From: Gyromitra esculenta
Taxonomy: Eukaryota > Ascomycota > Pezizomycetes > Pezizales > Discinaceae
DNA: 64,000 nt
Direction of reading: 5' to 3'
Assembly (NCBI GenBank): GCA_038503075.1
Contig: JBCAML010000017.1
Span: forward strand, 992,001-1,056,000
Shown: piece by piece, positions 1,541 through 64,000 of the stretch
Position numbering within the stretch: the stretch's first letter is position 1
Layout of the letters: each line of letters starts with the position of its first letter
Position numbers and translations under genes: made by a program
Notes under the pieces: model-generated
Told to the model about the DNA's origin: nothing
The model's input: the letters and a program-made list of their open reading frames with translations, nothing else
Database searches by the model: none

Positions 1541-1949
1541 TCTCAAGGGGCGAGGTTTATCTTCAAGCTCTCAGGTATCCCCCGAGATAAGCAGTGCTAC
1601 TTGAAGGGAAAACTAAGCGACGAGAGTGTTTTACGAGGTTCCACAGGCTCTACAGAATGTTCAAGTATAGAGGACTTGAGGACGGCGGCAGCGTGAGGTT
1701 ATGAGGTGTAACCGAGGTTTGTATTGTAGAATACAAGAGTGGACAATAGAAGACGTTGCTTAAGGAAGGAGAAGAAAAAGTACAACAAGAGGGGGAATCC
1801 CTTCGCTTATATACTCGTAATCCACCTCTTTGATGACAAACGTATGACTCATTGTAAAGGAAACCAGGGGAAACATATAGAACAACCGACAGAACACCAC
1901 AACAAAACACTTATACCGCTAACCGAACAACACGACAACCATCCATGAA
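1541..1949 (-). repeat. 5' LTR of G1 (subfamily A, 409 bp)
   Basis: Sense orientation is minus, TTTCATGG...CCTTGAGA. A TATA box (TATATAAGCG, sense strand) lies about 50 bases upstream of the AAGCAACGT string. The 3' part carries the conserved hairpin TCTCGGG-GGATA-CCTGAGA. The outer flank starts ATTGC; the partner duplication is outside the window. Confidence 0.9.
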
Positions 1950-2052
1950 AATTGCTCTAGACAACAGACGTAGTATACTTACAAGTAGTGGTGTTAGTAT
2001 TAGGGTCCAGTTGCGTCCAACAAGCCCATGCGCTTTTTGAAGTACTGCAATA

Positions 2053-8309: not shown

Positions 8310-8722
8310 TCTCACGGTTGAGTCCCTCGTTAAGCTCTTCAGTATCCCTGAAGATGAGCAGTGCTACTTAGACGAGGTAACAATGCGTTCAAAGAGTGCA
8401 GCGTTTCTACAGGTTCTACAATGGGTCTATCTCAAGGCGAGATAAGTGCAGTGAAGCGAACAGCGACAGCGAGGATTCTGAGATAGAATCGAGATAGTAT
8501 TTATAACAAAGACAGAAGAAGGTAAACGAGAACGTTGCTTAAAGAAAGAAGAGAAAGAAAACAACAAGCGAAGGAAATCCATCATTTAAATACCCCGCTT
8601 TTCCCAACAAATCCAATAACCAATAACAACCAAAATACAATAGCATTATAATAAAAAATCCGAAATCCATACCAACCGTCGCACCAAATCCTAACCCTAT
8701 CCCTAATCCTTAATCCGTGAAA
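8310..8722 (-). repeat. Solo LTR, subfamily B, TSD CACAG
   Basis: Exact ends TCTCACGG...CCGTGAAA on the plus strand, flanked by CACAG at 8305-8309 and 8723-8727. It is nearly identical to the LTRs of G2 (51908 and 63745), so it belongs to the same recently active subfamily. Contains TATA, AAGCAACGT and the hairpin structure. Confidence 0.92.
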
Positions 8723-46154: not shown

Positions 46155-48283
46155 GTGGACCGTAAGCTAATAGTGCGTAAAGTCGGTGTTATTCTAGACG
46201 CTGGATCGAGCGGGACTCGTATTCACGTCTACCGTTGGCAAGACCACAAATCCACCCGAGAAACGGCCTCGAAAGACCAGCTTGCCAGCCTACCCACAAT
46301 CGTCACGAAGAAAAAATGGGCAAAAAAGATCCATCCAGGTGAGTCGCCAGCCCCCATTTTATTGAGAGCGCGTCCGCACCCCAGCTATATTCTAATTCAG
46401 GGGGGGAAGGCATTTCGACATTCGCCGATAAACCTGACCTCGTTGGCCCTGGCCATCTCGCAGGCCTCTTCGAGCATGCCCTAGAATACATCCCAAGGGA
46501 TGCCATCGTCGAAACACCATTATTCCTGCTAGCAACAGCGGGGATGCGCCTTCTCCCGGATCGAGAGCGCCGACGTCTTCTTGACGAGATTTGTACCTAT
46601 GCGCGCCGTAATACCGAGTTCCTACTACCGGATTGTGGGTTACATATCCAGGTTATATCTGGTGAGACGGAGGGGCTCTACGGATGGATCGCTGCAAACT
46701 ATCTTCTCGGGGGTTTTGATGACCCGGTGAAGCACGCGCATGGAAATGGGCATCACACGTATGGCTTTCTAGATATGGGAGGTGCTAGCGCACAGATTGC
46801 TTTTGCGCCGAATACTACTGAGTCGAAAAAACACGCCGAAGACCTCACGCTACTGCGGATGAGGACATTGGATGGGATGGCGATGGAATTTGGAGTGTTT
46901 GTGACTACTTGGCTAGGTTTCGGCGTAAATCAGGCGAGGATGAGGTATGTAGAGAAGTTGGTCGAGGCGAGTGGCGGGGATGGGGTGGAGGAGCTACCGG
47001 ACCCGTGTCTGCCGCGGGGATTGGAAGTTACATTGGAGGGCAGCGAAATCGGCGACAGTGATAAGATGAAGCCCGTAAAAGAGGAACCCCATTTAATAGG
47101 CACTGGACTCTTTGAGGAATGTCTGTCTCAAACATATCCCCTCCTCTCGAAAGACATCCCCTGCCAACAAATATCCTGCCTCCTCACGAGTAAACATGCT
47201 CCCGCTATTGATTTCAACATCAACCACTTTGTTGGCGTCTCTGAATACTGGCACACTACGCATGAGATCTTTGAAGCCGGTCACGGTACTAAAGCTTATG
47301 ACCTCGTAACTTACCAAAACCGGGTCAAGGAATTTTGTGCGCAATCGTGGAGCACCATTGAGGACCTTGTTGACTCCCAAAAATGGGGTAAGAAAGTTGA
47401 CAAGCAGACTGCAATGCAGGTCTGCTTCAAGGCATCTTGGGTTATAAATGTCTTACACAATGGCATTGGGATCCCGCGTATCGGCATTGAGACGGATGGC
47501 AAACATACCCACAATGTGACAGAAGAAGTGGTAGAAGTTGCGAAGGATAAAGGCTTCCTAGACCCGTTCCAACCCGTGGATAAGATTGGCGATGTGGAGG
47601 TATCCTGGACCCTTGGGAAGATCGTCCTTTACGCGGCGAGTCAGGTCCCACCCAAAGATAATAGTGTCCTTGCAGTAGGATTCGGGTCCAATACTCCTGT
47701 GACTGCTACAGGTCTCCCAGCCGATTTTGAGTTCGCGAGCTCATCGCATCCGCAGGTCTCAGGTTCAGGGTCATCCGGGGTACCAAACCCAGGCTCAAAT
47801 TATAGTATGGATGGCGCAGCCGATCCGGCTCACTGGCACGACAACCTCTGGCGCGAAGGTGATGCCGTTCCGCGCCGCATCCCAGGTATCATCCTTTTCC
47901 TTATTATCTTCGCTATCGCTGCTTTCCTACTCCTCGGCCGTGAGCGCCGCGGGAAAATATGGCATAACCTTAGGGTATCCGGGAAAAAGGGAAGGCGAAA
48001 GATCCTTGGATCAAGCGGCGGCATCATCTATGAGCGTGTCATCGAAGAAGGTGCTGGGGCAGAATTTGAGCTTGGAAGTGTCTCGAGCGATGACGATGAT
48101 GCAGGTTGGAGGGGCAAGAGTCGGATGTATGATCCGCCGATAGGGGGCAGTGGAGCTAGCACAGTGAGGAGTGGGTTGGGGACGAGGGTTGGAAGTCGAG
48201 AGAGGCTTCCAGTCGTTAGTAGAAGCCGAAACGGAAGCCCATGTAGAGGTGCAAGGGCAAGGAGTCCTCTCCCACCGAGATAG
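46155..48283 (+). CDS. YND1: GDA1/CD39 family nucleoside di/triphosphatase (Ynd1-like Golgi apyrase)
   Basis: Hydrolyses nucleoside di- and triphosphates in the Golgi lumen, supporting nucleotide-sugar exchange during glycosylation. Two clear exons: from about 46152 to 46338, and 46410-48283, about 685 residues. Apyrase conserved regions are in order: GVILDAGSSGTRIHVYRW, LLATAGMR, VISGETEGLYGWIAANYLL, FLDMGGASAQIAF, and SWTLGK near residue 470. After the luminal domain comes one membrane segment (IPGIILFLIIFAIAAFLLLG) and a basic, Ser-rich cytosolic tail ending RARSPLPPR, as in Ynd1 rather than N-anchored Gda1. The true start is unresolved: TAG lies just upstream (46149-46151) and CTCTAG there looks like an acceptor, so a short first exon is probably missing. 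Confidence 0.9.
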
Positions 48284-51907: not shown

Positions 51908-52320
51908 TTTCACGGATTAAGGATTAGGGATAGGGTTAGGATTTGGTGCGACGGTTGGTATGGATTTCGGATTTTTTATTATAATGCTATTGTATTTCGG
52001 TTGTTATTGGTTATTGGATTTGTTGGGAAAAGCGGGGTATTTAAATAATGGATTTCCTTCGCTTGTTGTTTTCTTTCTCTTCTTTCTTTAAGCAACGTTC
52101 TCGTTTACCTTCTTCTGTCTTTGTTATAAATACTATCTTGATTCTATCTCAGAATCCTCGCTGTCGCTGTTCGCTTCACTGCACTTATTTTGCCTTGAGA
52201 TAGACCAATTGTAGAACCTGTAGAAACGCTGCACTCTTTGAACGCGTTGTTACCTCGTCTAAGTAGCACTGCTCATCTTCAGGGATACTGAAGAGCTTAA
52301 CGAGGGACTCAACCGTGAGA
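51908..52320 (+). repeat. 5' LTR of G2 (subfamily B, 413 bp)
   Basis: TTTCACGG...CCGTGAGA. TATTTAAATAATGG acts as TATA box; AAGCAACGT at 52090-52098. Right after the 5' terminus comes ATTAGGGATAGGGTTAGG, close to telomere repeats. Confidence 0.93.
52253..52305 (+). promoter_or_regulatory. Conserved two-stem RNA structure in the LTR 3' part
   Basis: Outer stem CCTCGTCTAAG (52253-52263) with CTTAACGAGG (52296-52305), single-stranded TAGCACTGCTCA, inner stem TCTTCAG / CTGAAGA closing a GGATA loop (52283-52287). The same architecture, with compensatory changes, is found in nearly every LTR here (for example 57083-57143). As it lies downstream of the presumed transcription start it would be in the 5' UTR of the genomic RNA. 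Confidence 0.75.
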
Positions 52321-52331
52321 TTACGTTGCTT
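52321..52331 (+). other. Primer-binding site of G2 (self-priming type)
   Basis: TTACGTTGCTT directly follows the LTR; ACGTTGCTT (52323-52331) is the exact complement of AAGCAACGT in the LTR (52090-52098), about 50 bases downstream of TATA. No match to a tRNA 3' end is apparent. Confidence 0.7.
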
Positions 52332-52516
52332 GCTCCTCTACACCTTCTACGTCGACGCCCCCTCATGGAACTTATTGCTTGGATTCATCAATCCATCTTG
52401 CAAATTTTCCCCTGCCTGACGCCACGAAGACCCCAGATCATCACTGACGTCACTCCAGAGTGGCTCGACCATCACTACCTACGCACCAATTCTCTCCCGT
52501 GCGATTCACCGAGATC

Positions 52517-53838
52517 ATGAGCTCACCCGCTCCTGCTGGCCCTTCTACTGAAGGAGCCGCAGTCGCCGCTCAAAGATTTCCCACGAGAGAAGCTTTCGCC
52601 CAAGGCATGAGAGAAGACCCCGTCGAGCTATACAACCAGCTCCGGGAACTCAATCAGGCACTGGAAGATCAGATCGACGCTCTCCAGGAGATAGAGAAGG
52701 ATGCTGAAGTCAAACTCAGCACAGCACAGATACAGGTGGAAAATGCCCTCCGCCACGCTGCCACACAGGATCAACGGGTCACTGAAGCCGCTAGCCTAAT
52801 TGCCCGACTTCGACAAGAACGGAATGAAGCTCGATCCGCCACCCAAGCGCCCCCCGCTCCACCCAACCTTACAGCTACCCCCCCCCGCCGTCAAACACCC
52901 ACCGATCTGAACGCATGCCAGACCCAAAGAAGTTCGACGGATCCCGAGCAAAACTCCCCGGCTTCATACTCCAACTACGTTCCAAGTTAACAGTCAACCA
53001 AGACCGCTTTGCCAATGAGACCACAATGATACTTTATACTATCAATCGACTGGAAGGAGCAGCCCTGGAACAGGTCCGCCACACGGTTCTCCCCTCAGGC
53101 CTCACCACTTGGAACAGCGCGGAACAACTTATCACCGCCTTGGAAACTGCCTTTGGAGACCCAAACCCAACCGGCACCGCTCGACAAGAACTCCACCAAC
53201 TCCGCCAAGGAAAGCGCGATTTCTCAGCCTACCTGGCCGATTTCCAAAGGATCATGGGCCAGTTAAACTTCGACGAAAACTCAAAAATGGACGCCCTGGA
53301 ACATGGCATGTCGGAGGAACTGAAAGAAGCGATGGTCTTCGCCCCCATTGCCCCTGCCACACTCCCAGAGATGATTCTCACCCTTACTCGACTGGATAAT
53401 CGTATCCGAGCCCGCAAAGCAGAGAAACGAGGAAACGCTCGCGATGGTATGGGCCAATTCAGTGCTCCAGCTGCCTTCACTCCTGCCTCCTCCTTCACCC
53501 TAGGAGGACTAGCCCCCATGGACCTATCTTTTGGTCGCACCAGCAACAACTCTCGCCCCCCTCAGGACCAACGATACACGATGGTTAATGGAAGAAGGAA
53601 GCTTTCGGAGGAAGAGAAACAGTGGCGCCGTTCCACTGGAAAATGCATGTTTTGCGCGGCCCCTGACCACTCCTACGCCAACTGCCCCTCCGCTCCCAAG
53701 AAACCAACCATGAGGGGAGCCCTCACCGCACCACCCGCCGCCCGTACACCCGCCGCCTCCTCTCTTCCACTGCCAGCACTTCCCCCTCAGTTTTTCGCAT
53801 TAGAATCAGCAGACTCTTCCAATGAGTCTTTAAACTAG
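52517..53838 (+). pseudogene. G2 Gag, frameshifted
   Basis: Starts MSSPAPAGPSTEGAA, with a coiled coil (LYNQLRELNQALEDQIDALQ). The frame is lost in a run of nine C (52878-52886); downstream, one base off, the capsid domain continues MPDPKKFDGSRAKLPGF, LETAFGDPNP, FQRIMGQLNFDENSKM and the zinc knuckle CMFCAAPDHSYANC. G1 and G3 are continuous at this point, so a lost C in G2, not a programmed shift, is the likely cause. The second half is expressed separately only if an internal ATG at 52915 is used. Confidence 0.85.
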
Positions 53839-53873
53839 TCCAACTAAGGCCGAACAGTGACCCCGCCTTGGTT
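53829..53873 (+). promoter_or_regulatory. -1 ribosomal frameshift site of G2
   Basis: TCT TTA AAC TAG: heptamer TTTAAAC (53829-53835) just before the gag stop; 6-base spacer; stem AACTAAGGC (53842-53850) with GCCTTGGTT (53865-53873), 14-base loop. Pol continues in the -1 frame without an ATG. Against G3 the stem shows two fully compensated pairs and two wobble changes. Confidence 0.87.
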
Positions 53874-56742
53874 CCCATTTCTTTACCTTTGTCAGCATTT
53901 TCTATTTCGAGTTTTTCAGTATCGGATGTGTGTATGAAGAATCAATTGGATGGGGAACATTTTGTTATATCATGTATCATTTCCCATAACAATAAAATCA
54001 TAAAAACCCACGCACTATTGGACACAGGAGCCTCAGGATTTGCTTTTATAGATAAAGAATTCGCGAGTCACCACTCTCTACCCCTTACTTCTTTGAAATC
54101 ACCTCGACAGCTTGAAGTCATCGATGGTCGCCCTGTCGCTTCAGGAGACATTACCCACATCATTAACCTCAACCTGTCCATCCAAAACCACCGAGAACAA
54201 GCCCCCTGCTTTGTGACCCAACTGGGCCACTACCCTCTAGTCTTAGGAATACCATGGATGAATCATCACGACGTCCAGCTCCATTTCGCTGACAAACGCA
54301 TTGAGTTTAATTCTAAACTCTGCACTACCCATTGCGCCCCTTATTCCCCGGTTGTATCCACCTCATCGATCCCCACTCCTCCACGATTAAACCTGTCTTT
54401 TATCAATGCCGCCAGCTTCAGGACCCTTACTCGAAAACGGTCCCTGCAAGCTTACGCGATGTCCCTCTACGAAATTAATAAAATCCTAGAGAAAAAAACT
54501 ACGAAGGAAGAATGGAGAGCAAGGATCCCAGTTGAATATCATGACTTCTTGGATATGTTTGACAAGAAAAAAGCCCAAGGTCTATCCCCACGTCGACCCT
54601 ATGACCACAAGATACAGCTCCAAGATGGAAAAGAAGCCCCATTTGACCCTCTATACGGGATGTCTCGGGAAGAGCTAATCGTCCTAAAAAAATACATTGA
54701 GGACAATCTTGAGAAAGGCTTCATCCGAGCCAGCTCTTCGCCTGCCGGATCCCCTGTCCTTTTTGTCAAAAAGGCTGACGGCTCCCTCCGCTTATGTGTA
54801 GACTATCGGGGCCTTAATGCGATTACAGTTAAAGACCGGTACACCTCTCCCCTTATTCGTGAGACGCTTGATCGACTAGCAAAAGCACAATGGTATACCA
54901 AACTTGACCTCCGTGACGGATATCACCAAATACGCATTGCTGAAGGGGATGAATGGAAAACTGCCTTCCGCACCCGATATGGTCTCTACGAATATCAAGT
55001 TATGCCATTCGGCTTAACCAATGCACCTGGCACATTTCAACGCTTTGTCAACGACTGCCTGAGAGAATATCTAGATATTTTCTGCACCGCCTATCTCAAT
55101 GACATCCTCATTTATAGCGATACCTTCGCAGAACACCAAGTCCACGTTCGCAAGGTTCTCCAAACCCTTAAGGATAATCATATTTTGCTGAAACCAGAGA
55201 AATGCGAGTTCGAGGTACAAACTACCAAGTACCTCGGTCTCATCCTCACCCCTGACGGCATCAAGATGGACGAGGAGAAACTCAAAGCCGTTCGGGAATG
55301 GGGGACACCAAAGAGTGTAAAAGACATCCAGGCATTTTCAGGTTTCGCCAATTTCTATCGTCGATTCATCCTAGGATTCTCCAAACTTGCTGCCCCTCTC
55401 ACCGCCCTCACCAAGAAAGGCATTGTCTTTGAGTGGACTGTCGAAGCTGATATAGCTTTCGAAAACCTCAAACACGCCTTTACCACTGCCCCGATCCTCA
55501 TCCACTTCGACCCAGATAAGAAAATCATTGTGGAAACAGATGCCTCAGACTTCGTGTCCGGAGGAGTCCTATCCCAGTACGATGATAACGATGTCCTGCA
55601 CCCGGTGGCCTTCTTCTCGAAGAAACATTCCCCCGCGGAATGCAACTACGAGATCTACGATAAAGAGCTGTTGGCCATCATCCGTGTTTTCGAAGAATGG
55701 CGCCCAAAGCTTGAGGGATCAAAGCACCCAATCGATGTGATTAGTGACCATAAGAATCTTGAATACTTCATGAGTACTAAGCAACTCAATCGACGTCAAG
55801 CTAGATGGGCCAAGTACTTATCCCGTTTTGATTTTGTAATAACGTATCGACCTGGAAGCCAAGGAGGAAAACCAGATGCACTCACTAGGAGATCAGGAGA
55901 TCTCCCCAAGGAAGGGGATGAACGATTGGCACACCAAAGCCAAGTGGTATTAAAGAAGGAAAATATTGATCCCAAGCTAAGTTTTTTGTCGGCTTCTTTG
56001 TCAAATGAAGCCGCTGAATTGGATGTCCCCCTAAAGAAACTTTTCCAAGAAGGATTCATCGCTGACAAGTTCCTGGAAGAGATACTCAAAGCACTAAGGA
56101 ATAAAGATCAACAATCAAAAAAGATCACCTTAAGTGAGTGCACAGAGGAAAACGGAAGGCTATGTTATCGAGGGTGCATCTATGTCCCCAACCTGGACGC
56201 TCTCCACTTGGAATTAATCCGAAGACACCATGATAACCCTGCAGCAGGCCACCCGGGACGAGACAAGACCTTTGAACTCCTTGCTAGAAGCTTTTACTGG
56301 CCAAAGATGAGAGAATCAATCAAGCAATATGTACGCAACTGCCATATCTGCCAGAAAGCGAAGCCAGTCACTCAGCGAACCCAAGGAGTTCTCCGTCCTC
56401 TACCTATTCCAAACCGCCCCTGGCAAGAGATCTCGATGGACTTTGTGACAGGCCTCCCAGAATCGAACGGCTATGATGCTATTATGGTAATAGTCGACCG
56501 ACTATCAAAAATGCAACATCTCATCCCGTGCAATACTACTGTCAATTCACGAGACGTCGCAGATCTCTACCTCCAGCATGTTTGGAAACTTCACTGCTTA
56601 CCGACACATATTACCTCCAATCGAGGAACACAGTTCACCGCCCATTTTTGGAAGGAACTCTGCCAGCGTCTAGGAATTCAAGGCAGGATGTCAACAGCCT
56701 TCCATCCTGAGACCGATGGACAAACGGAACGATTGAACGCGG
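53829..56742 (+). pseudogene. G2 Pol (protease, RT, RNase H, integrase), first part
   Basis: Open frame of about 970 codons. Protease LLDTGASGFAFIDKEF; reverse transcriptase with SLRLCVDYRGLNAITVKD, KLDLRDGYHQIRI and YLND where YLDD is expected (Asn AAT at 55098-55100); RNase H VETDASDFVSGGVLSQ and YDKELLAI; integrase zinc finger HHDNPAAGHPGRDKT...CHICQKAK, catalytic core MDFVTGLPESNGYDA and ITSNRGTQF where the second catalytic Asp is Asn (AAT 56619-56621), and HPETDGQTERLNAVM, where element G3 interrupts. Both catalytic losses are G-to-A on the coding strand. The reading frame is otherwise intact, so these point changes alone would kill the element. Confidence 0.92.
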
Positions 56743-56747
56743 TTATG

Positions 56748-57155
56748 TTTCATGGATGGATGTTTTGTTGATTGGTTAGGCGCAAGGGTTGGTGGTTGTC
56801 ATGTTGTATCGGTATTCCTTTTGTTTCTTCGGATTTCTGTTATCATGAGTCAGGTCTTTGTCATCGGAAGAGTTGGAACGTGGTATATAAGTGAAGGGAA
56901 TTCCCCTCTTGTTGCGCTTTTCCTTCTTCTTTCCTTAAGCAACGTCTTCTATTGTTTACTCGTGTATTTCACAATACAATCCTCGGTTACACCTCGTAAC
57001 CCATCGCTGTCGCTGCCCTCAAGTCATCATAACTTGACCCCCTCGTAGAGCCTGTAGAATCTCCGTATACACTCTCGCTGTTGGTTTCCTACTCAAGTAG
57101 CACTGCTCATCTCGAGGGATACTCGAGAGCTTGATCTGAAACCCACACCTTGAGA
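56748..57155 (+). repeat. 5' LTR of G3 (subfamily A, 408 bp)
   Basis: TTTCATGG...CCTTGAGA; TATATAAGTG box near 56884; AAGCAACGT at 56937-56945; two-stem structure at 57083-57143 (GGTTTC/GAAACC outer, TCTCGAG/CTCGAGA inner). Confidence 0.95.
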
Positions 57156-57166
57156 TTATGTTGCTT
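57156..57166 (+). other. Primer-binding site of G3
   Basis: TTATGTTGCTT: complementary to AAGCAACGT of the LTR with one G-U pair in place of G-C. Confidence 0.65.
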
Positions 57167-57212
57167 CCTAATCTACACCCTCTACCCTGCTCCCCCTCAA
57201 TCAAGAGTCACC

Positions 57213-58876
57213 ATGAGCAACTCCGCCCCCGCCCCCTGGACCTTCCCCACATTTGAGAACTTCCAGGCCGCCGCCAACGCAGACCTCGCCTCCGCCTATG
57301 AGGAAATCCGCTCACATTATCAACAGCGAGTGGACAACCTCACCTACGCAGACCTACAACTTGAGGAAGTCACTCAAGAAAGGAACAACATGACAGCAAG
57401 GTTCAACACTTGCCAGTCCCAACTACAAGCGACTGAGGCAGAGGTCGCCCGCCTTCGTAACGCTGCCCCTCCACCACCTGTGCCCTCGCCACCACTGCCT
57501 CCTGCTTATACACAAGGAGGCCGTTCGGACAAGATGCCCAACCCAGATAAATTCAATGGGTCCCGCGACAAACTCCCCGGGTTCGTTCTGCAACTCCGGT
57601 CAAAACTCTCGGTTAACGCCGACCGCTTCTCCAATAGCAACAATATGATATTGTATGCTATCAGCCGCCTCGAGGGAGCTGCCCTCGAACAGATCCGCCA
57701 CTCTGTCCTCCCTGACGGGACCACTACCTAGAACAACGCCGCCGAATTGATTACAGCCTTGGAGACCGCCTTCGGTGACCCTGACCCACTTGGAACTGCT
57801 CGCTGTGAGCTACACCAGCTCCAACAAGGGAAACGGGACTTTTCCGCCTATCTCGCGGATTTCCAACGGATCATGGGGCGATTAAACTACGATGAATCTG
57901 CGAAGAATGATTCCCTGGAATTCGGAATGTCAGATGAGCTGAAAGAAGCCGTGGTGACGGTTGCCGACTTCCCCACCACCTTCACCTCCCTATGCGCCTT
58001 CCTCCTCCGCTTAGATAATCACATCCGAGCAAGGAGGGAAGAAAAAAAAAATTCTGCCCATATCTCAAGGAGCGAGATTCTCGTCAAGCTCTCAGGTATC
58101 CCCCGAGATAAGCAGTGCTACTTGAACGAGAAACTAGCAACAGGAGAATGCGCGAAGACTCTACAGGCTCTACCAGTGGTTCAAGTTATGATGACTTGAA
58201 GACGGCGACGACGAAAGATTACGAGGTGTAATCTAAGTTTGTATTCGTGAGGTACAATGAGTGTGCAATAGAAGACGTTGCTTAAAGAAAGAAGAAGGAA
58301 AAGTACAGGATGAGGGGAAACCCCCTCGCTTATATACCACGTTCCATCTCTTTCGATGACAAAGACATGACTCATTACAACGAAACACTCATAGAAGCAA
58401 AAAGAATAACAATGAAACCCAACGACCATGTACCCCTGTACCTAACCGATTACCACAACATCCATCCATGAAACCATAACACCATGGGACAATTTACCGC
58501 CCCTTCCGCCGCTCCCGCTGCCTTTACCCCCGCCTCCTCCTCCTTCGCACTGGGAGGACTTGCACCCATGGATCTTTCTTTCGGCCGTACCTCTACCCCT
58601 CGCCCTGCCCCTGAACAACGATATATTCAGATCAACGGAAGAAGGAAGCTGTCTCCTGAGGAAAAATCTTGGAGACAGACCAACAACCGCTGCCTGTTCT
58701 GCGCTGGGGAAGGACATATTTTCTCCAACTGCCCCTCCGCCTTCAAGCGTCCCGCTATGAGAGGAGCCGTTACCAATGCCGCCGCCGCCCCTCCTGCACC
58801 TTCAGTTTTTCCGCCGCCTCTGCCACCTCGCTTTCCTGCTTTCGATGCAGCAGACTCAGTTGAGTCTTTAAACTAG
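57213..58876 (+). pseudogene. G3 Gag, nonsense codon and solo LTR
   Basis: MSNSAPAPWTFPTFENF, same domain order as G1 Gag. TAG at 57729-57731 replaces a Trp codon (TGG in G1). A solo LTR (58063-58473) lies between NSAH and NTMGQF; the frame resumes after it. Zinc knuckle CLFCAGEGHIFSNC. Ends in TTTAAAC-TAG. Confidence 0.9.
58063..58473 (-). repeat. Solo LTR, subfamily A, TSD CCATA, inside G3 gag
   Basis: TCTCAAGG...CCATGAAA flanked by CCATA (58058-58062, 58474-58478). Third nesting level: solo LTR in G3 in G2, and the youngest of the three events. Confidence 0.93.
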
Positions 58877-58911
58877 TTCAACCAGAGTCGCCCTGTGACC
58901 CTGCTCTGGTT
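58867..58911 (+). promoter_or_regulatory. -1 ribosomal frameshift site of G3
   Basis: TTTAAAC (58867-58873), stop TAG, 6-base spacer, stem AACCAGAGT (58880-58888) with GCTCTGGTT (58903-58911), loop 14 bases. Confidence 0.87.
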
Positions 58912-61900
58912 CATTTTTCTCCTTTGTCAGCATTCTCTATTTCCGGGTTTTCAGTGTCGGATGTGTGTGTGGAGGATAATTTGGATGGGGAACATTTTGT
59001 AGTTTCATGTAGCCTTTCCCACCAAAATAAAATCATAAAAACACACGCACTTCTTGACACTGGAGCCTCAGGGTTCGCTTTCATTGATGAAAAATTCGTG
59101 CGTCACCATTCTCTACCATTGTCTCCCCTTAAAACCCCTCGCCAATTAGAAGTCATTGATGGCCGAACAATTGCCTCGGGAGATATTGTTAACCTTTGCC
59201 ACTTGGAGCTTTCCATACAACAACACAACGAGAAAGCCCCCTTTTTTGTCACCAAACTAGGACATTAACCCCTAGTGCTCGGTATCCCATGGATGAACCT
59301 CCACGACGTCCACCTACAATTCGCCAATAAAAGCATTGAATTCAACTCTGAATTCTGCACCACCCACTGTGCCCCAAAGCAACCCATTGTCTCCGCCGCC
59401 GCAATCCTACCTCCAGCTAAACTCAATGCCGCCTTTATTGGTGCTGCAAGCTTTCGCATGCTCGCCCGGAAAAAAGGTATCCAAGTATACTCGATGTCTC
59501 TATATGAGATAAATAAGGTCCTCGACAGTAAAACTACTAAAGAGGAATGGAGACAACGAATACCCGCGGAATATCATGAATACCTGGATATGTTCGATAA
59601 AACGAAAGCCCAAGGCCTCCCTCCCCGTCGCTCCTACAACCACCGCATCACCCTCCAAGAAGGCAAGGAACCCCCATTTGGCCCTCTCTATGGTATGTCA
59701 CAAGATGAACTTCTTGTTCTTAAGAAGTATATCGAAGACAACTTAGAAAAAGGCTTTATCTGCGCTAGTTCCTCATCCGCCGGCTCTCCCGTCCTCTTTG
59801 CCGCAAAACCCAACGGATCTCTACGTCTCTGCGTAGACTACCGAGGTCTCAATGCTCTCACTGTCAAGGACCGTTACACCTCCCCGCTCATCAAAGAGAC
59901 CCTCGACCGCCTCGCTAAAGCACAATAGTATTCCAAGCTAGACCTCCGAGACGGATTTCATCAAATCCGTATCGCAGAAGGAGAAGAATGGAAAACCGCT
60001 TTCAGAACTCGTTACGGTCTCTACGAATACATGATAATGCCATTCGGCCTCACTAATGCCCCCGGTACCTTCCAGCGCTTCGTCAATGATTCCCTCCGAG
60101 AATACTTGGACCTATTTTGCACGGCCTATCTCGATGATATCCTGATCTATAGTGATACCCTCGCCGAGCACAAGATCCATGTCCGACAAGTCCTTGATGC
60201 CCTGAAAGCCAATAACATACTTCTCAAACCCAAGAAGTGTGAATTCCATGTCCAATCCATAAAGTATCTCGGATTGATCCTTACACCTGAAGGAATCAAG
60301 ATGGACGAAGACAAACTCAAAGCCGTACGAGATTGGAACCGCCCAAAATGTATTAAGGATGTTCAGGCTTTCCTTGGTTTTGCAAACTTCTACCGACGAT
60401 TCATCCTAGGATTCTCCCGCCTGGCCGCCCCCCTTACCGCCTTTACCAAAAAAGGTATTATCTTCGAATGGACAGTTGAGGCAGAACTCGCTTTCGAAGT
60501 CCTAAAAGACGCCTTCACCAAGGCTCCCGTACTCATCCACTTCGATCCCCGAAAAAAGATCTTTGTGGAATCTGATGCTTCTGACTTTGTCTCCGGTGGT
60601 GTTCTCTCCCAACTTGATGATAATGGCGTGCTCCACCCTGTGGCATTTTTCTCCAAGAAGCATTCACCCGCCGAATGCAACTATGAGATCTATGATAAAG
60701 AACTTCTAGCGATTATCCGATGCTTCGAGGAATGGAGACCAGAACTTGAAGGCTCTGAGCTACCCATCTCAGTCATTACCGACCATAAGAACTTGGAATA
60801 TTTCATGACTACCAAGCAACTTAATCGACGACAAGTCAGATGGGCCGAATACCTCTCACGTTTCGATTTCGTTATCACGTACAGACCAGGAGTACAAGGA
60901 GGAAAACCAGATGCACTGACTCGGAAATCAGGAGATCTCCCTGAAGAAGGGGATGAAAAACTACGACACCAATACCAAGTAGTCTTGAAGGAAAAGAATT
61001 TGGACCCCAAGCTGAGTTTGTTTTCGGGTTCTTTATCAAATGAACCCGCTGAATTGGATGCCACCCTCGAGACTTTAATAAATCATGGATACAATGCTGA
61101 CCTGTTCCCACAAAAAATCCTTCTAGCACTTAGGAATGGCGAACGACAATCTAAGGAAATCACCTTAGGCGATTGTACCGAAACGAATGACCGTCTTTTC
61201 TACAGACAAAAGCTTTATATCCCCGACCATGACCCCCTCCGTCTCCTCATTCTACGACATCATGACACCCCCTCCGCCGGCCACCCAGGACGTGAAAAAT
61301 CCTTTGAACTCATCTCAAGATGTTTCTATTGGCCAAAAATGAGGGAATATATTAGACGATATACCCGGAATTGTCATATCTGCCGACGAGCTAAACCAAG
61401 TACTCTCGGTACCCATGGCGTCCTGAAACCACTCCCAATTCCCAATCGCCCTTGGGAAGAACTGTCGATGGACTTCGTCACTGGCCTTCCAGAATCTAAT
61501 GGCTTTGATGCCATTATGGTCATTGTGGATCGACTCTCAAAGATGCGGCATCTTATGCCATGTAATACCACCATTAACGCCGAACAAACTGCCGAGCTAT
61601 ACCTCCAAAACATCTGGAAACTCCATGGACTTCCCTCTCATATTACTTCTGATAGAAGAACACAGTTCACCGCAAAGTTTTGGAAGCACCTCTGCCAGCG
61701 TTTGAATATTGCCACCCGCATGTCTACCTCCTTCCACCCGGAAACTGATGGACAAACCAAATGACTTAACGCCGTGATGGAGCAATACCTCCGGTGTTAT
61801 GTGTCCTATCAGCAAGATGACTGGTCTAAGTGGTTACCTATTGCCGAATTCTCTGCTAATAACCAGGAATCTGCAAGTACTAAGGCCACACCCTTCTTCG

Positions 61901-62550
61901 CTAATTATGGCTATCACCCCCGGTTTGATACTTCTATCGTCCCCAATGATCGTTCCCCACAAACCCTTGATGCCGATAACTTTGTCCAATAGATGGAAGA
62001 GTTGAGAGACTTCCTCCGAACGCAAATGAGAACGGCCCAGGACGTCTTGGAAAGCAGTACCAATAAGCACCGTACTCCTGCTCCATCATTTAAGATCAAG
62101 GACGAAGTCTTCGTATCCATGAAGAACATGAGGACAACCAGGAATTCAAGAAAGTTAGACTGGAAGTGGAGTTGCCCTTTTCCAATAAAACGGGTGATTT
62201 CAGCCTATGCCTACGAGGTTGAATTACCAATCTCGATGAAGTATCACCCCGTGTTCCATGTTTCGTTACTAAGAGCCGCCCCCATCGACCCTCTCCCAGG
62301 CCAAATTATCGCTCCTCCACCTCTAATCCAAGTTAACGACCACAAAGAAAACCTTGTCGAGAGTATTCTAGACTCCCGCCTTCGTCGAGGAAAACTCCAA
62401 TACCTAGTCGAATGGACTGGTTACGCGCTACCCACTTGGGAACCTGCGGAGTATCATGAAGAAACGGAAGCAGTCGATGTCTTCCATCAAAGGTATCCGG
62501 ATAAAGCTAGGAAGGACTTGATTAGTGTTCACAGGAGCTCACGGCTATGA
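58867..62550 (+). pseudogene. G3 Pol with chromodomain, four nonsense codons
   Basis: One frame throughout, broken by stops at 59266-59268 (Tyr codon to TAA), 59926-59928 (TGG to TAG), 61762-61764 (CGA to TGA) and 61990-61992 (probably CAG to TAG). Protease LLDTGASGFAFIDEKF; reverse transcriptase with an intact YLDD; RNase H VESDASDFVSGGVLS; integrase HHDTPSAGHPGREKS...CHICRRAK, MDFVTGLPESNGFDA, ITSDRRTQF (Asp kept), HPETDGQTK; C-terminal chromodomain-like ENLVESILDSRLRRGKLQYL and WTGYALPTWEPAEY. The chromodomain, which targets insertion to marked chromatin, classes the element as a chromovirus. Confidence 0.92.
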
Positions 62551-62561
62551 GGGAGGGCTAC
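62551..62561 (+). other. Polypurine tract of G3
   Basis: GGGAGGGCTAC directly before the 3' LTR; G2 has the related GGGGGGCTAC at the same place. Confidence 0.75.
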
Positions 62562-62969
62562 TTTCATGGATGGATGTTTTGTTGATTGGTTAGGCGCAAG
62601 GGTTGGTGGTTGTCGCGTTGTATCGGTGTTCCTTTTGTTTCCTCGGATTTCTGTTATCATGAGTCAGGTCTTTGTCATCGGAAGGGTTGGAATGCGATAT
62701 ATAAGCGAAGGGAATTCCCCTCTTGTTGCGCTTTTTCTTCTTCTTTCCTTAAGCAACGTCTTCTATTGTTTACTCGTGTATTTCACAATACAATCCTCGG
62801 TTACACCTCGTAATCCATCGCTGTCGCTGCCCTCAAGTCATCAGAACTTGACCCCCTCGTAGAGCCTGTAGAACCTTCGTATACACTCTCGCTGTTGGTT
62901 TCCTACTCAAGTAGCACTGCTCATCTCGAGGGATACTCGAGAGCTTGATCTGAAACCCACTCCTTGAGA
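62562..62969 (+). repeat. 3' LTR of G3 (subfamily A, 408 bp)
   Basis: Followed by TTATG, then the G2 pol sequence resumes. About 15 differences from the 5' LTR. Confidence 0.95.
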
Positions 62970-62974
62970 TTATG

Positions 62975-63757
62975 GAACAATACCTACGCTCCTATGTGTC
63001 TTATCAACAAGGTGACTGGAGCGATTGGTTACCGATGGCAGAATTTTCTGCAAACAATCAAGAATCGACTAGTACCAAGGTCTCGCCTTTTTTCGCAAAC
63101 TATGGTTACCATCCCCGGTTCGATACTTCCATTATTCCTTCAACAGCCACTGCCCAAAGTCTAGATTCCTCAACCTTCGCAACCACAATGCAAGAATTGT
63201 ATGACTACCTCCGAACGCAAATTCGAACAGCTCAGGACATTCAAGAAACCTCGACTAATAAGCACCGAACCCCGGCCCCTGCTTATCAAGTCAATAACCA
63301 GGTATTTGTATCCATGAAGAATATCCGAGCCGTTCAAAATGCCCGGAAACTCGACTGGAAATGGATGGGACCTTATCCGATAAAGAAGATAGTATCGCCT
63401 TTTGCATACGAAATTGATCTTCCACCATCAGTCAAGTATCACCCCGTCTTCCACGTTTCGCTCCTTAAACCTGCCGCCGATGATCCTCTCCCAGGACAAA
63501 TAATACCCCCTCCATCTCCAATTGTAGTTAATGAACAGGAGGAATATTTTATTGAGAAAATCCTCGAGCAACGGATACATCGCGGACGACAACAATACCT
63601 TGTTGAATGGACTGGTTATGCTCATCCTACCTGGGAACCTGCCGAAGATCTTCAGGATACAGCTGCCCTTGATATCTTTTTAACTACCACGACTACTACC
63701 AGTCCTAAGGTTCGCAGGAGCTCACGCTTGAGACGGGGGGCTACTTTCACGGATTAA
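62975..63757 (+). pseudogene. G2 Pol, second part (integrase C-terminus and chromodomain)
   Basis: Resumes EQYLRSYVSYQQGDW and contains FSANNQESTSTKVSPFFANY, KLDWKWMGPYPIKKI (GPY/F-type module), KYHPVFHVSLLKP and a chromodomain EEYFIEKILEQRIHRGRQQY...WTGYAHPTWEPAED. The frame stays open through RRSSRLRRG and stops 11 bases inside the 3' LTR (TAA 63755-63757). Confidence 0.92.
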
Positions 63758-64000
63758 GGATTAGGGATAGGGTTAGGATTTGGTGCGACGGTTAGTATAG
63801 ATTTCGGATCTTTTATTATAATGCTATTGTATTTCGGTTGTTATTGGTTATTGGATTTGTTGGGAAAAGCGGAGTATTTAAATGATGGATTTCCTTCGCT
63901 TGTTGTTTTCTTTCTCTTCTTTCTTTAAGCAACGTTCTCGTTTACCTTCTTCTGTCTTTGTTATAAATACTATCTTGATTCTATCTCAGAATCCTCGCTG
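63745..64000 (+). repeat. 3' LTR of G2 (partial, window end)
   Basis: Starts TTTCACGG after GGGGGGCTAC. The visible 256 bases match the 5' LTR with about five transitions. Confidence 0.93.

What the first reader, a model, noticed from the sequence alone, without database searches (positions are those of the whole stretch)
52253..52305. Covarying two-stem RNA structure conserved in nearly every LTR
Each LTR 3' part can fold into an outer stem, a constant single-stranded TAGCACTGCTCA, and an inner 7-bp stem around GGATA. Inner stems differ yet pair: TCTTCAG/CTGAAGA (52276), CCTTCAG/CTGAAGG (33285), CCTTTGG/CCAAAGG (23243 copy), TCTCGAG/CTCGAGA (57110), TCTCTGG/CCAGAGA (32866). Outer stems also covary: CCTCG..TTAAG with CTTAACGAGG; TTCTCG..TCAAG with CTTGACGAGAA (51150); TTTTCG..TCAAG with CTTGACGAAA (10651 copy); CTTCATC.AAG with CTTGATGAAG (25380 copy); GGTTTC...TCAAG with CTTGA...GAAACC (57083). 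Loops stay constant while stems change, the signature of a selected RNA. Position in the 5' UTR and R/U5 suggests a role in priming, packaging or translation (inference).
Basis: partly seen in the sequence, partly recalled or inferred. Interest (0 to 1): 0.88.

Follow-up and report, generated by a model that had tools for sequence, protein, structure and literature searches.

The report
Structured self-priming leader of fungal retrotransposons
A folded RNA piece repeated in well over a thousand jumping-gene ends of one fungal genome is real, because its two sides change together, and it sits inside a larger RNA fold with which the jumping gene most likely makes its own primer for copying itself into DNA.

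Summary
The window has 22 copies of the two-stem motif; the exact core occurs 1,608 times in the genome. Over 87 aligned leaders the inner stem pairs in 99.0% of cells, with 9 inferred double compensatory changes (0 in six slid controls); the outer stem pairs in 86.7%, with 8 (0-1 in slid controls). Of 37,675 column pairs, inner-stem pair 191-199 ranks first against a phylogeny-aware null.

The motif lies in U5, 17 nt before a primer-binding site complementary to the element's own AAGCAACGT. In 93 of 106 LTRs a TATA-like box lies 50-53 nt before that word, and ATGs become rare from there on. A second U5 segment pairs with sequence just after the binding site and covaries with it across 131 nt. 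This matches the three-duplex "pretzel" of self-primed Tf1/sushi retrotransposons (PMC10085805, passages).

Best reading: an elaborated U5-IR-like stem-loop that helps form or cleave the self-primer. Self-priming is well supported by sequence; the motif's exact job is inferred; there are no RNA data. New variant of a known kind.

The parts
51908..52320 (+). 5' LTR of element A (413 bp, TTTCACGG...CCGTGAGA)
   Evidence: 98% identical copy at 8310-8722(-) and the start of the 3' LTR at 63745-64000; that solo copy is flanked by a 5-bp duplication CTGTG
52038..52047 (+). TATA-like box TATTTAAATA
   Evidence: a TATA-like word lies 50-53 nt before the inferred RNA start in 93 of 106 distinct LTR copies, elsewhere within 90 nt in 9, absent in 4
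52090..52098 (+). inferred RNA 5' end and self-primer AAGCAACGT
   Evidence: complementary to the PBS; of 55 LTRs followed by a PBS 45 exact, 7/2/1 with 1/2/3 mismatches; ATGs become rare from here on
52140..52156 (+). hairpin 1, GATTCT-ATCTC-AGAATC
   Evidence: 6 inferred double changes, slid controls 0; pair 51-65 E_prop 0.0022
52187..52201 (+). hairpin 2 in R/U5
   Evidence: 8 inferred double changes, slid controls 0-1; pair 98-110 E_prop 1.8e-5
52211..52224 (+). U5 arm of the long-range duplex, GTAGAACCTGTAGA
   Evidence: 98.1% of 12 pairs x 87 leaders paired with 52337-52350; pairs 125-256 and 132-249 E_prop 3.8e-4 and 0.020; other registers of the repeated word do not covary
52253..52263 (+). 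outer stem, 5' arm (bulged T at 52258)
52264..52275 (+). nearly invariant 12-nt internal loop TAGCACTGCTCA
   Evidence: 0.83 inferred changes per column against 5.73 over the leader (copies were taken with up to 3 mismatches in this word)
52276..52294 (+). inner 7-bp stem with GGATA loop (TCTTCAG-GGATA-CTGAAGA)
   Evidence: 99.0% paired, 9 inferred double changes, 0 in six slid controls; in the MFE of 86 of 87 leaders
52296..52305 (+). outer stem, 3' arm
   Evidence: 86.7% paired, 8 inferred double changes, slid controls 0-1; in the MFE of 83 of 87
52323..52331 (+). primer-binding site ACGTTGCTT, 2 nt after the LTR end
   Evidence: GAGATTANNTTGCTT occurs 531 times in the genome, control 1
52337..52350 (+). 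arm downstream of the PBS, TCTACACCTTCTAC, partner of 52211-52224
52915..56747 (+). coding part of element A up to the nested insertion (ORFs read as they stand): gag, protease, RT, RNase H, integrase
   Evidence: Pfam Retrotrans_gag, RVP_2, RVT_1, RT_RNaseH, Integrase_H2C2, rve
62972..63757 (+). rest of element A coding part: SH3_Tf2-1 and chromodomain
   Evidence: Pfam SH3_Tf2-1 6.2e-17, Chromo 5.9e-9
56748..62969 (+). nested element B of the same kind, with its own motif at 57086-57140 and 62900-62954, primer 56937-56945, arm 57045-57058, PBS 57158-57166, second arm 57172-57185
   Evidence: two LTRs 96% identical, duplication TTATG; motif copies; sequences; Chromo 7.1e-8

Best explanation
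The two-stem motif is the U5 stem-loop of the reverse-transcription initiation structure of a family of self-primed, chromodomain-bearing Ty3-type retrotransposons. The RNA starts with AAGCAACGU, which folds back onto the primer-binding site just after the LTR. A second U5 segment (GUAGRRCCUGURGA) pairs with the stretch just after the binding site. These two long-range duplexes cross, so they form a pseudoknot. The motif stands between them as an outer stem, an asymmetric 12-nt internal loop and a 7-bp hairpin capped by GGAUA. By analogy with Tf1, this fold lets the element's RNase H cut the 5' end off as a 9-11-nt primer and lets its reverse transcriptase start on it. Shown here: the complementarities, the covariation, the position. 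Inferred: the RNA start, the cleavage, and the motif's contribution to it, perhaps as a docking site for RT or Gag through its nearly invariant loops.
For: LTR word AAGCAACGT complementary to ACGTTGCTT 2 nt after the LTR in A and in the element at 1541-1950(-), with one G.U in B. Of 55 distinct LTRs followed by a PBS, 45 exact and 10 with 1-3 mismatches. The word after the LTR has no TGG, so no usual tRNA site (sequence; tRNA rule recalled). U5 arm and PBS-downstream arm pair in 98.1% of cells and covary at 125-256 and 132-249, 131 and 117 nt apart; swapping arms between A- and B-type leaders raises mispairs from 0.23 to 1.18 of 12. Nested folding, which cannot hold crossing helices, shows one or the other long duplex in 85 of 87 leaders, never both. 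Inner and outer stem covary. The loops change least: 0.83 and 0.20 changes per column against 5.73 overall. TATA-like box 50-53 nt upstream in 93 of 106; ATGs per copy 1.60 and 1.65 in the two distal 60-nt U3 bins, 0.35 in the last, then 0.00, 0.02, 0.05, 0.12 in R-U5. Chromodomain and Tf2-1-type SH3. The pretzel and its tie to self-priming are described in PMC10085805 (passages); primer cut after base 11 in Tf1 in PMC7175516 (passages).
Against: No RNA start, probing or cDNA data. The primer:PBS duplex hardly varies, so it shows no covariation (0 double changes), and the junctions were fetched with a pattern that fixes most of the PBS. CpG-type changes leave 8 inferred breaks in it. In the pretzel as described, both flanking duplexes use PBS-adjacent sequence; the outer stem's 3' arm ends 17 nt before the PBS, so equating it with the third duplex is inference. 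Three outer-stem pairs are weak (46-62 of 87). Across all column pairs the long-range pair 125-256 has only E ~0.25, and one non-pairing column pair (265-269, E ~1.3) ranks fourth. The LTR ends in GA, not in CA as in the fission-yeast relatives. Membership in the Tf1/sushi clade by tree was not tested.
Confidence: 0.72

Rival explanations
1. The motif is a packaging or dimerisation signal bound by Gag, located in the leader next to the priming structure but not needed for priming. The loop contains the near-palindrome AGCA-C-TGCT, which could form a kissing pair between two RNAs.
For: Nearly invariant loops on changeable stems are what a protein- or RNA-binding site would show. The position in the 5' leader suits it.
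Against: The palindrome is broken in the TAGCTC form, 156 exact copies, and in the rare AGATC forms. No statistics on the palindrome were made. Nothing here tests Gag binding.
Confidence: 0.15
2. The motif controls translation of gag (ribosome pausing, shunting or an IRES-like role).
For: It lies in an almost ATG-free leader, so ribosomes probably scan or are shunted through it.
Against: ATG scarcity is explained by ordinary scanning and does not need this structure. The structure lies far upstream of the first downstream ATGs. No open reading frame ends at it as known shunts require (the shunt rule is recalled; not tested).
Confidence: 0.06
3. It works as DNA: an inverted repeat bound by a regulator or by integrase.
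For: The stems are inverted repeats in DNA as well, and the LTR end is near.
Against: A whole clade carries a G.U (DNA G.T) pair inside the inner stem: 18 of 87 at pair 190-200. The LTR end itself is conserved separately. Two other hairpins and a 131-nt long-range duplex in the same transcribed region covary.
Confidence: 0.03
4. Shared descent of a few LTR subfamilies, with chance complementarity, mimics covariation.
For: The copies are related, and most double changes sit on subfamily branches.
Against: The null redistributes changes along the tree; two column pairs exceed all 80 null alignments, both canonical pairs. Slid controls give 0-1 double changes. Several states at one pair: CG 61, GU 18, GC 5, UA 2, AU 1 at 190-200.
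Confidence: 0.02

Closest known systems
Tf1 / Tf1-sushi self-priming 'pretzel' (Tf1, Tf2, Tj1, Tosmo, Tcry1 of fission yeasts)
   Same: 5' end of the RNA complementary to the PBS; further duplexes between PBS-neighbouring sequence and LTR sequence downstream of the self-primer; chromodomain (PMC10085805, PMC4600332, PMC7175516: passages; here).
   Different: Here the U5 part is an elaborate two-tier stem with a nearly invariant 12-nt loop and a GGATA-capped 7-bp hairpin; the primer complement is 9 bp (11 nt in Tf1); two more covarying hairpins precede it; the LTR ends in GA rather than CA.
U5-IR stem-loop of retroviruses and of Tf1 (Lin and Levin 1998)
   Same: Position in U5 just upstream of the PBS; a 7-bp stem. 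Recalled, not read: 7-bp stem with 5-nt loop in Rous sarcoma virus, 7-bp stem with 25-nt loop in Tf1, needed for primer cleavage. The title was seen in reference lists only; the paper is not held.
   Different: Recalled: loop sequence was unimportant in Tf1. Here the loops are the least changed part of the motif.
Tcn1-like chromoviruses of fungi and plants
   Same: Chromodomain Gypsy elements of fungi; self-priming was proposed for Cryptococcus Tcn1 (PMC7175516, passage).
   Different: For the plant SM-Tcn1 neither tRNA priming nor self-priming was found (PMC2864245, passage). No sequence comparison was made.
The 15 fungal RNA motifs of Li and Breaker 2017 (PMC5640933)
   Same: Covarying structured RNAs of fungi.
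   Different: None of the 15 headings concerns a retrotransposon; the words retrotransposon, transpos and retro do not occur in the main text (section list and passages).

Membership tests
Ty3/gypsy chromodomain LTR retrotransposon (chromovirus) | gag, PR-RT-RNaseH-IN order, chromodomain after integrase | tested here: met
   Pfam hits in that order in element A pieces; RT closest in PDB to Ty3 RT, 4ol8, E 2.3e-66
Tf1/sushi self-primed group | RNA 5' end complementary to a PBS just after the 5' LTR | tested here: met
   9-nt complement 2 nt after the LTR; 55 of 55 PBS-bearing LTRs carry the word with 0-3 mismatches. The RNA 5' end itself is inferred
Tf1/sushi self-primed group | pretzel: two further duplexes between PBS-neighbouring and LTR sequence | tested here: inconclusive
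   Downstream duplex met and covarying. The upstream one is the outer stem, whose 3' arm ends 17 nt before the PBS: equivalence inferred
Tf1/sushi self-primed group | reverse transcriptase/integrase falls in that clade of the tree | not tested
   no named reference sequences were fetched; only the SH3_Tf2-1 Pfam match points that way
Tf1/sushi self-primed group | LTR ends in CA (as said of the fission-yeast elements compared in PMC10085805) | tested here: not met
   TTTCAYGG...TGAGA with 5-bp duplications in 41 of 128 candidate LTRs; not a feature that defines the group
tRNA-primed LTR retrotransposon | PBS begins with TGG, complementary to a tRNA 3' end (recalled rule) | tested here: not met
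   after the LTR: TTACGTTGCTTCC in 45 of 55 and close variants in the other 10; no TGG
U5-IR stem-loop | stem-loop in U5 next to the PBS | tested here: met
   motif ends 17 nt before the PBS; covariation
U5-IR stem-loop | needed for initiation of reverse transcription | not testable with these tools
   needs RNA and enzyme work
Any Rfam family | match to a curated RNA family | tested here: not met
   0 matches at gathering score in the window; 0 at E <= 5 for 52080-52380

The most novel reading that the evidence does not exclude
This is a distinct class of initiation RNA: unlike in Tf1 (loop sequence unimportant, as recalled), the near-constant 12-nt loop and GGATA are read sequence-specifically by the element's own RT/RNase H or Gag, so that the motif licenses cleavage of the self-primer and couples it to packaging or dimerisation. 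The pseudoknot, the motif and the two R hairpins together form one folded RNA machine of about 260 nt, kept over leaders only 56-73% identical.
Probability: 0.3. Interest if true: 0.75.

Novelty: new variant of a known kind. Interest (0 to 1): 0.57.

Why it matters
Self-priming by a folded-back RNA end is known from Tf1 and a few relatives, where the fold rests mainly on mutants of one element and on inspection. Here one fungal genome holds 531 exact PBS junctions and 1,608 exact motif cores, in subfamilies that differ enough for natural compensatory changes to show. That gives comparative evidence for a pretzel-type pseudoknot and for an elaborate U5 stem-loop beside it, and it points to specific nucleotides (12-nt loop, GGATA) whose role in primer release can be tested.

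Tried and rejected
Rfam ribozymes or other known families: no match. A tRNA gene or tRNA primer: ARAGORN finds none in the window, no TGG at the PBS. The motif elsewhere: 0 exact matches of TAGCACTGCTCA-N7-GGATA-N7-GCTT in viral contigs; 1 in genome contigs, in a Clostridiales assembly, where the flanks do not pair, primer and arm are missing and the place looks coding, so chance. An RT fragment search of viral contigs gave 1 locus at 28% identity, not followed. Other registers of the repeated GTAGA/TCTAC words: no covariation (G' -9.1, -9.8, -7.2; 126-249 gives 8.9). Outer pairs that I first drew for hairpin 1 (48-68, 49-67) and hairpin 2 (94-114) do not pair (4, 5 of 87 and 3 of 63) and are not claimed. 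A first covariation run on 52 leaders gave the same leading pairs as the run on 87. Rows dropped: before A1, 4 of 112 rows as misplaced or truncated, the rest merged to 86 distinct 55-mers. Leaders: 124 junctions seen, 5 without the motif at 3 mismatches, 6 without an RNA-start word, 91 distinct, 2 dropped by length, then 2 more (one false start, one by a tighter length filter), leaving 87. Of the 5 without the motif, 3 keep the stems with a changed loop and 2 are not comparable LTRs. The covariation test is a home-made analogue of R-scape, not R-scape. Alignment samples lean to copies found by the loop or PBS pattern.

Full report
What is there. The finding lies in the 5' LTR (51908-52320) of an element A that is interrupted by a second element B (56748-62969). 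LTR boundaries follow from repeats and 5-bp duplications: TTATG around B, CTGTG around the solo copy at 8310-8722. Element A codes for gag, protease, RT, RNase H and integrase and ends in an SH3_Tf2-1 and a chromodomain, so it is a Ty3-type chromodomain element; the RT piece matches Ty3 RT best among solved structures (4ol8, E 2.3e-66).

The motif. The window holds 22 copies; the next model match is noise at E 3.9. The genome holds 1,608 exact cores with the main loop, control 0, and 156 with TAGCTC, control 0. On 86 distinct 55-nt copies, 87.3% of cells pair (78.8% in shuffles), 15 of 18 pairs show changes on both sides and the covariation score is 0.352 against 0.186; no slid version comes near. 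Folding alone supports it moderately: median z -2.58, 53 of 86 below -2, 4 of 86 above 0.

Covariation against phylogeny. I aligned 87 distinct leaders (RNA start to 48 nt past the LTR), built a tree, and made 80 null alignments by redistributing each column's inferred changes along the tree. Of 37,675 column pairs, only two exceed every null alignment: 191-199 in the inner stem (AU 51, GC 27, UA 9) and 98-110 in an upstream hairpin. Third is 125-256, E ~0.25, 131 nt apart (AU 62, GC 23). The fourth, 265-269, is not a pairing and has E ~1.3; hairpin pairs 99-109 and 51-65 follow at E ~1.3 and ~1.6. When only 54 proposed pairs are tested, ten reach E <= 0.05, four of them in the motif. Double changes inferred on the tree, observed / range in six slid controls: inner stem 9 / 0; outer stem 8 / 0-1; hairpin 1 6 / 0; hairpin 2 8 / 0-1; U5 arm with PBS-downstream arm 4 / 0-1; primer with PBS 0 / 0. 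Exchanging arms between A- and B-type leaders (median identity 0.62) raises inner-stem mispairs from 0.07 to 2.41 of 7 and outer-stem mispairs from 1.33 to 2.62 of 10.

Self-priming. The LTR carries AAGCAACGT; 2 nt past the LTR end lies its exact complement ACGTTGCTT in A and in the element at 1541-1950(-), with one G.U in B. Of 137 distinct LTR copies, 55 are followed by such a PBS; in these the word is exact in 45 and has 1, 2 and 3 mismatches in 7, 2 and 1. Among the 82 without a PBS it is exact in 58, with 1-3 mismatches in 22 and absent in 2. In the 10 inexact PBS-bearing copies most changes turn ACGT into ATGT or ACAT. GAGATTANNTTGCTT occurs 531 times genome-wide, control 1. In 93 of 106 copies a TATA-like word starts 50-53 nt upstream of AAGCAACGT. 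ATGs per 60 nt and copy fall from 1.60 and 1.65 in distal U3 to 0.35 in the last U3 bin and 0.00, 0.02, 0.05 in R-U5 (expected from composition 0.62-0.85), and are 0.12 in the last 45 nt. This is what an RNA that starts at AAGCAACGT and is translated by scanning would show.

The pretzel. GTAGRRCCTGTRGA in U5 pairs with TCYACACCYYCTAC starting 5 nt after the PBS. In 78 of 87 leaders all 12 pairs are kept, and the changes are compensatory: GTAGAG with CTCTAC, GTAGGA with TCCTAC, TGTGGA with TCCACA. Primer:PBS and this duplex cross. Nested folding puts the first in 42 and the second in 43 of 87 minimum-energy structures, never both, neither in 2. PMC10085805 (passages) describes for Tf1 a three-duplex structure, primer:PBS flanked by two duplexes between PBS-adjacent and LTR sequence, called the pretzel, and reports it for several fission-yeast elements. 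PMC4600332 (passages) tells the same of Tj1's self-primer, and PMC7175516 (passages) of Tf1's cut after base 11. The motif of this finding would be the upstream flanking duplex, elaborated. Lin and Levin 1998 on the Tf1 U5-IR stem-loop is not held; its content is recalled.

What the motif does. Inferred changes per column are 0.83 in the 12-nt loop and 0.20 in GGATA, against 2.57 and 2.14 in the inner-stem arms, 5.00 and 6.20 in the outer-stem arms and 5.73 over the leader. The loops are therefore the part kept by sequence, the stems the part kept by pairing. Caution: leaders were accepted with at most 3 mismatches in the loop; of 124 junctions, 119 met this, 3 more keep the stems with an AGATC-type loop and 2 are not comparable. 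The likeliest job is to help fold, present or cleave the self-primer and load RT. Packaging or dimerisation remains open; translation and DNA roles are less likely.

Novelty. Search of the held open-licence library showed no paper listing that describes this motif; papers outside that library could. Self-priming, the pretzel and U5-IR are known; the two-tier U5 stem with near-constant loops, the two further hairpins and comparative evidence from one genome are, as far as those searches go, new.

Noticed in passing
LTR ends, e.g. 51908 and 52320, 56748 and 57155: LTRs run TTTCAYGG...TGAGA, not TG...CA; 41 of 128 candidate LTRs have identical 5-bp flanks at exactly these borders (chance between different copies 0.002; borders shifted by 1 base agree in 9 each way, by 2 bases in 5 and 4).
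   Followed up: partly
52140-52156 and 52187-52201: Two further covarying hairpins in R (6 and 8 inferred double changes), function unknown.
   Followed up: partly
R-U5, 52090-52320: Almost no ATG on the sense strand from the inferred RNA start on, while U3 has about 1.6 per 60 nt.
   Followed up: yes
L070, L120, L131, L142-L145: Nine genome places have an AGATCG-type loop before the hairpin, in both A- and B-type backgrounds; some neighbours carry small deletions, so assembly errors are possible (pattern control 2).
   Followed up: partly
L021:2973-3027 and 156 genome places: A subfamily with TAGCTCTGCTCA, often with inner stem CCTTCTG/CAGAAGG. Column pair 157-178 changes with it in one clade.
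   Followed up: partly
self-primer and PBS columns: Changes there are mostly ACGT to ATGT or ACAT, as from decay of methylated CpG (cause inferred).
   Followed up: no
56748-62969 in 51908-64000: Element B is inserted into the pol region of element A, with a 5-bp duplication TTATG.
   Followed up: yes
46544-48283 (+): A host-like GDA1/CD39 nucleoside phosphatase ORF amid the repeats.
   Followed up: no
52217-52218 and 52343-52344: The U5 arm and its partner face each other with C's that do not pair in the middle of the duplex, and this gap is mostly kept.
   Followed up: no
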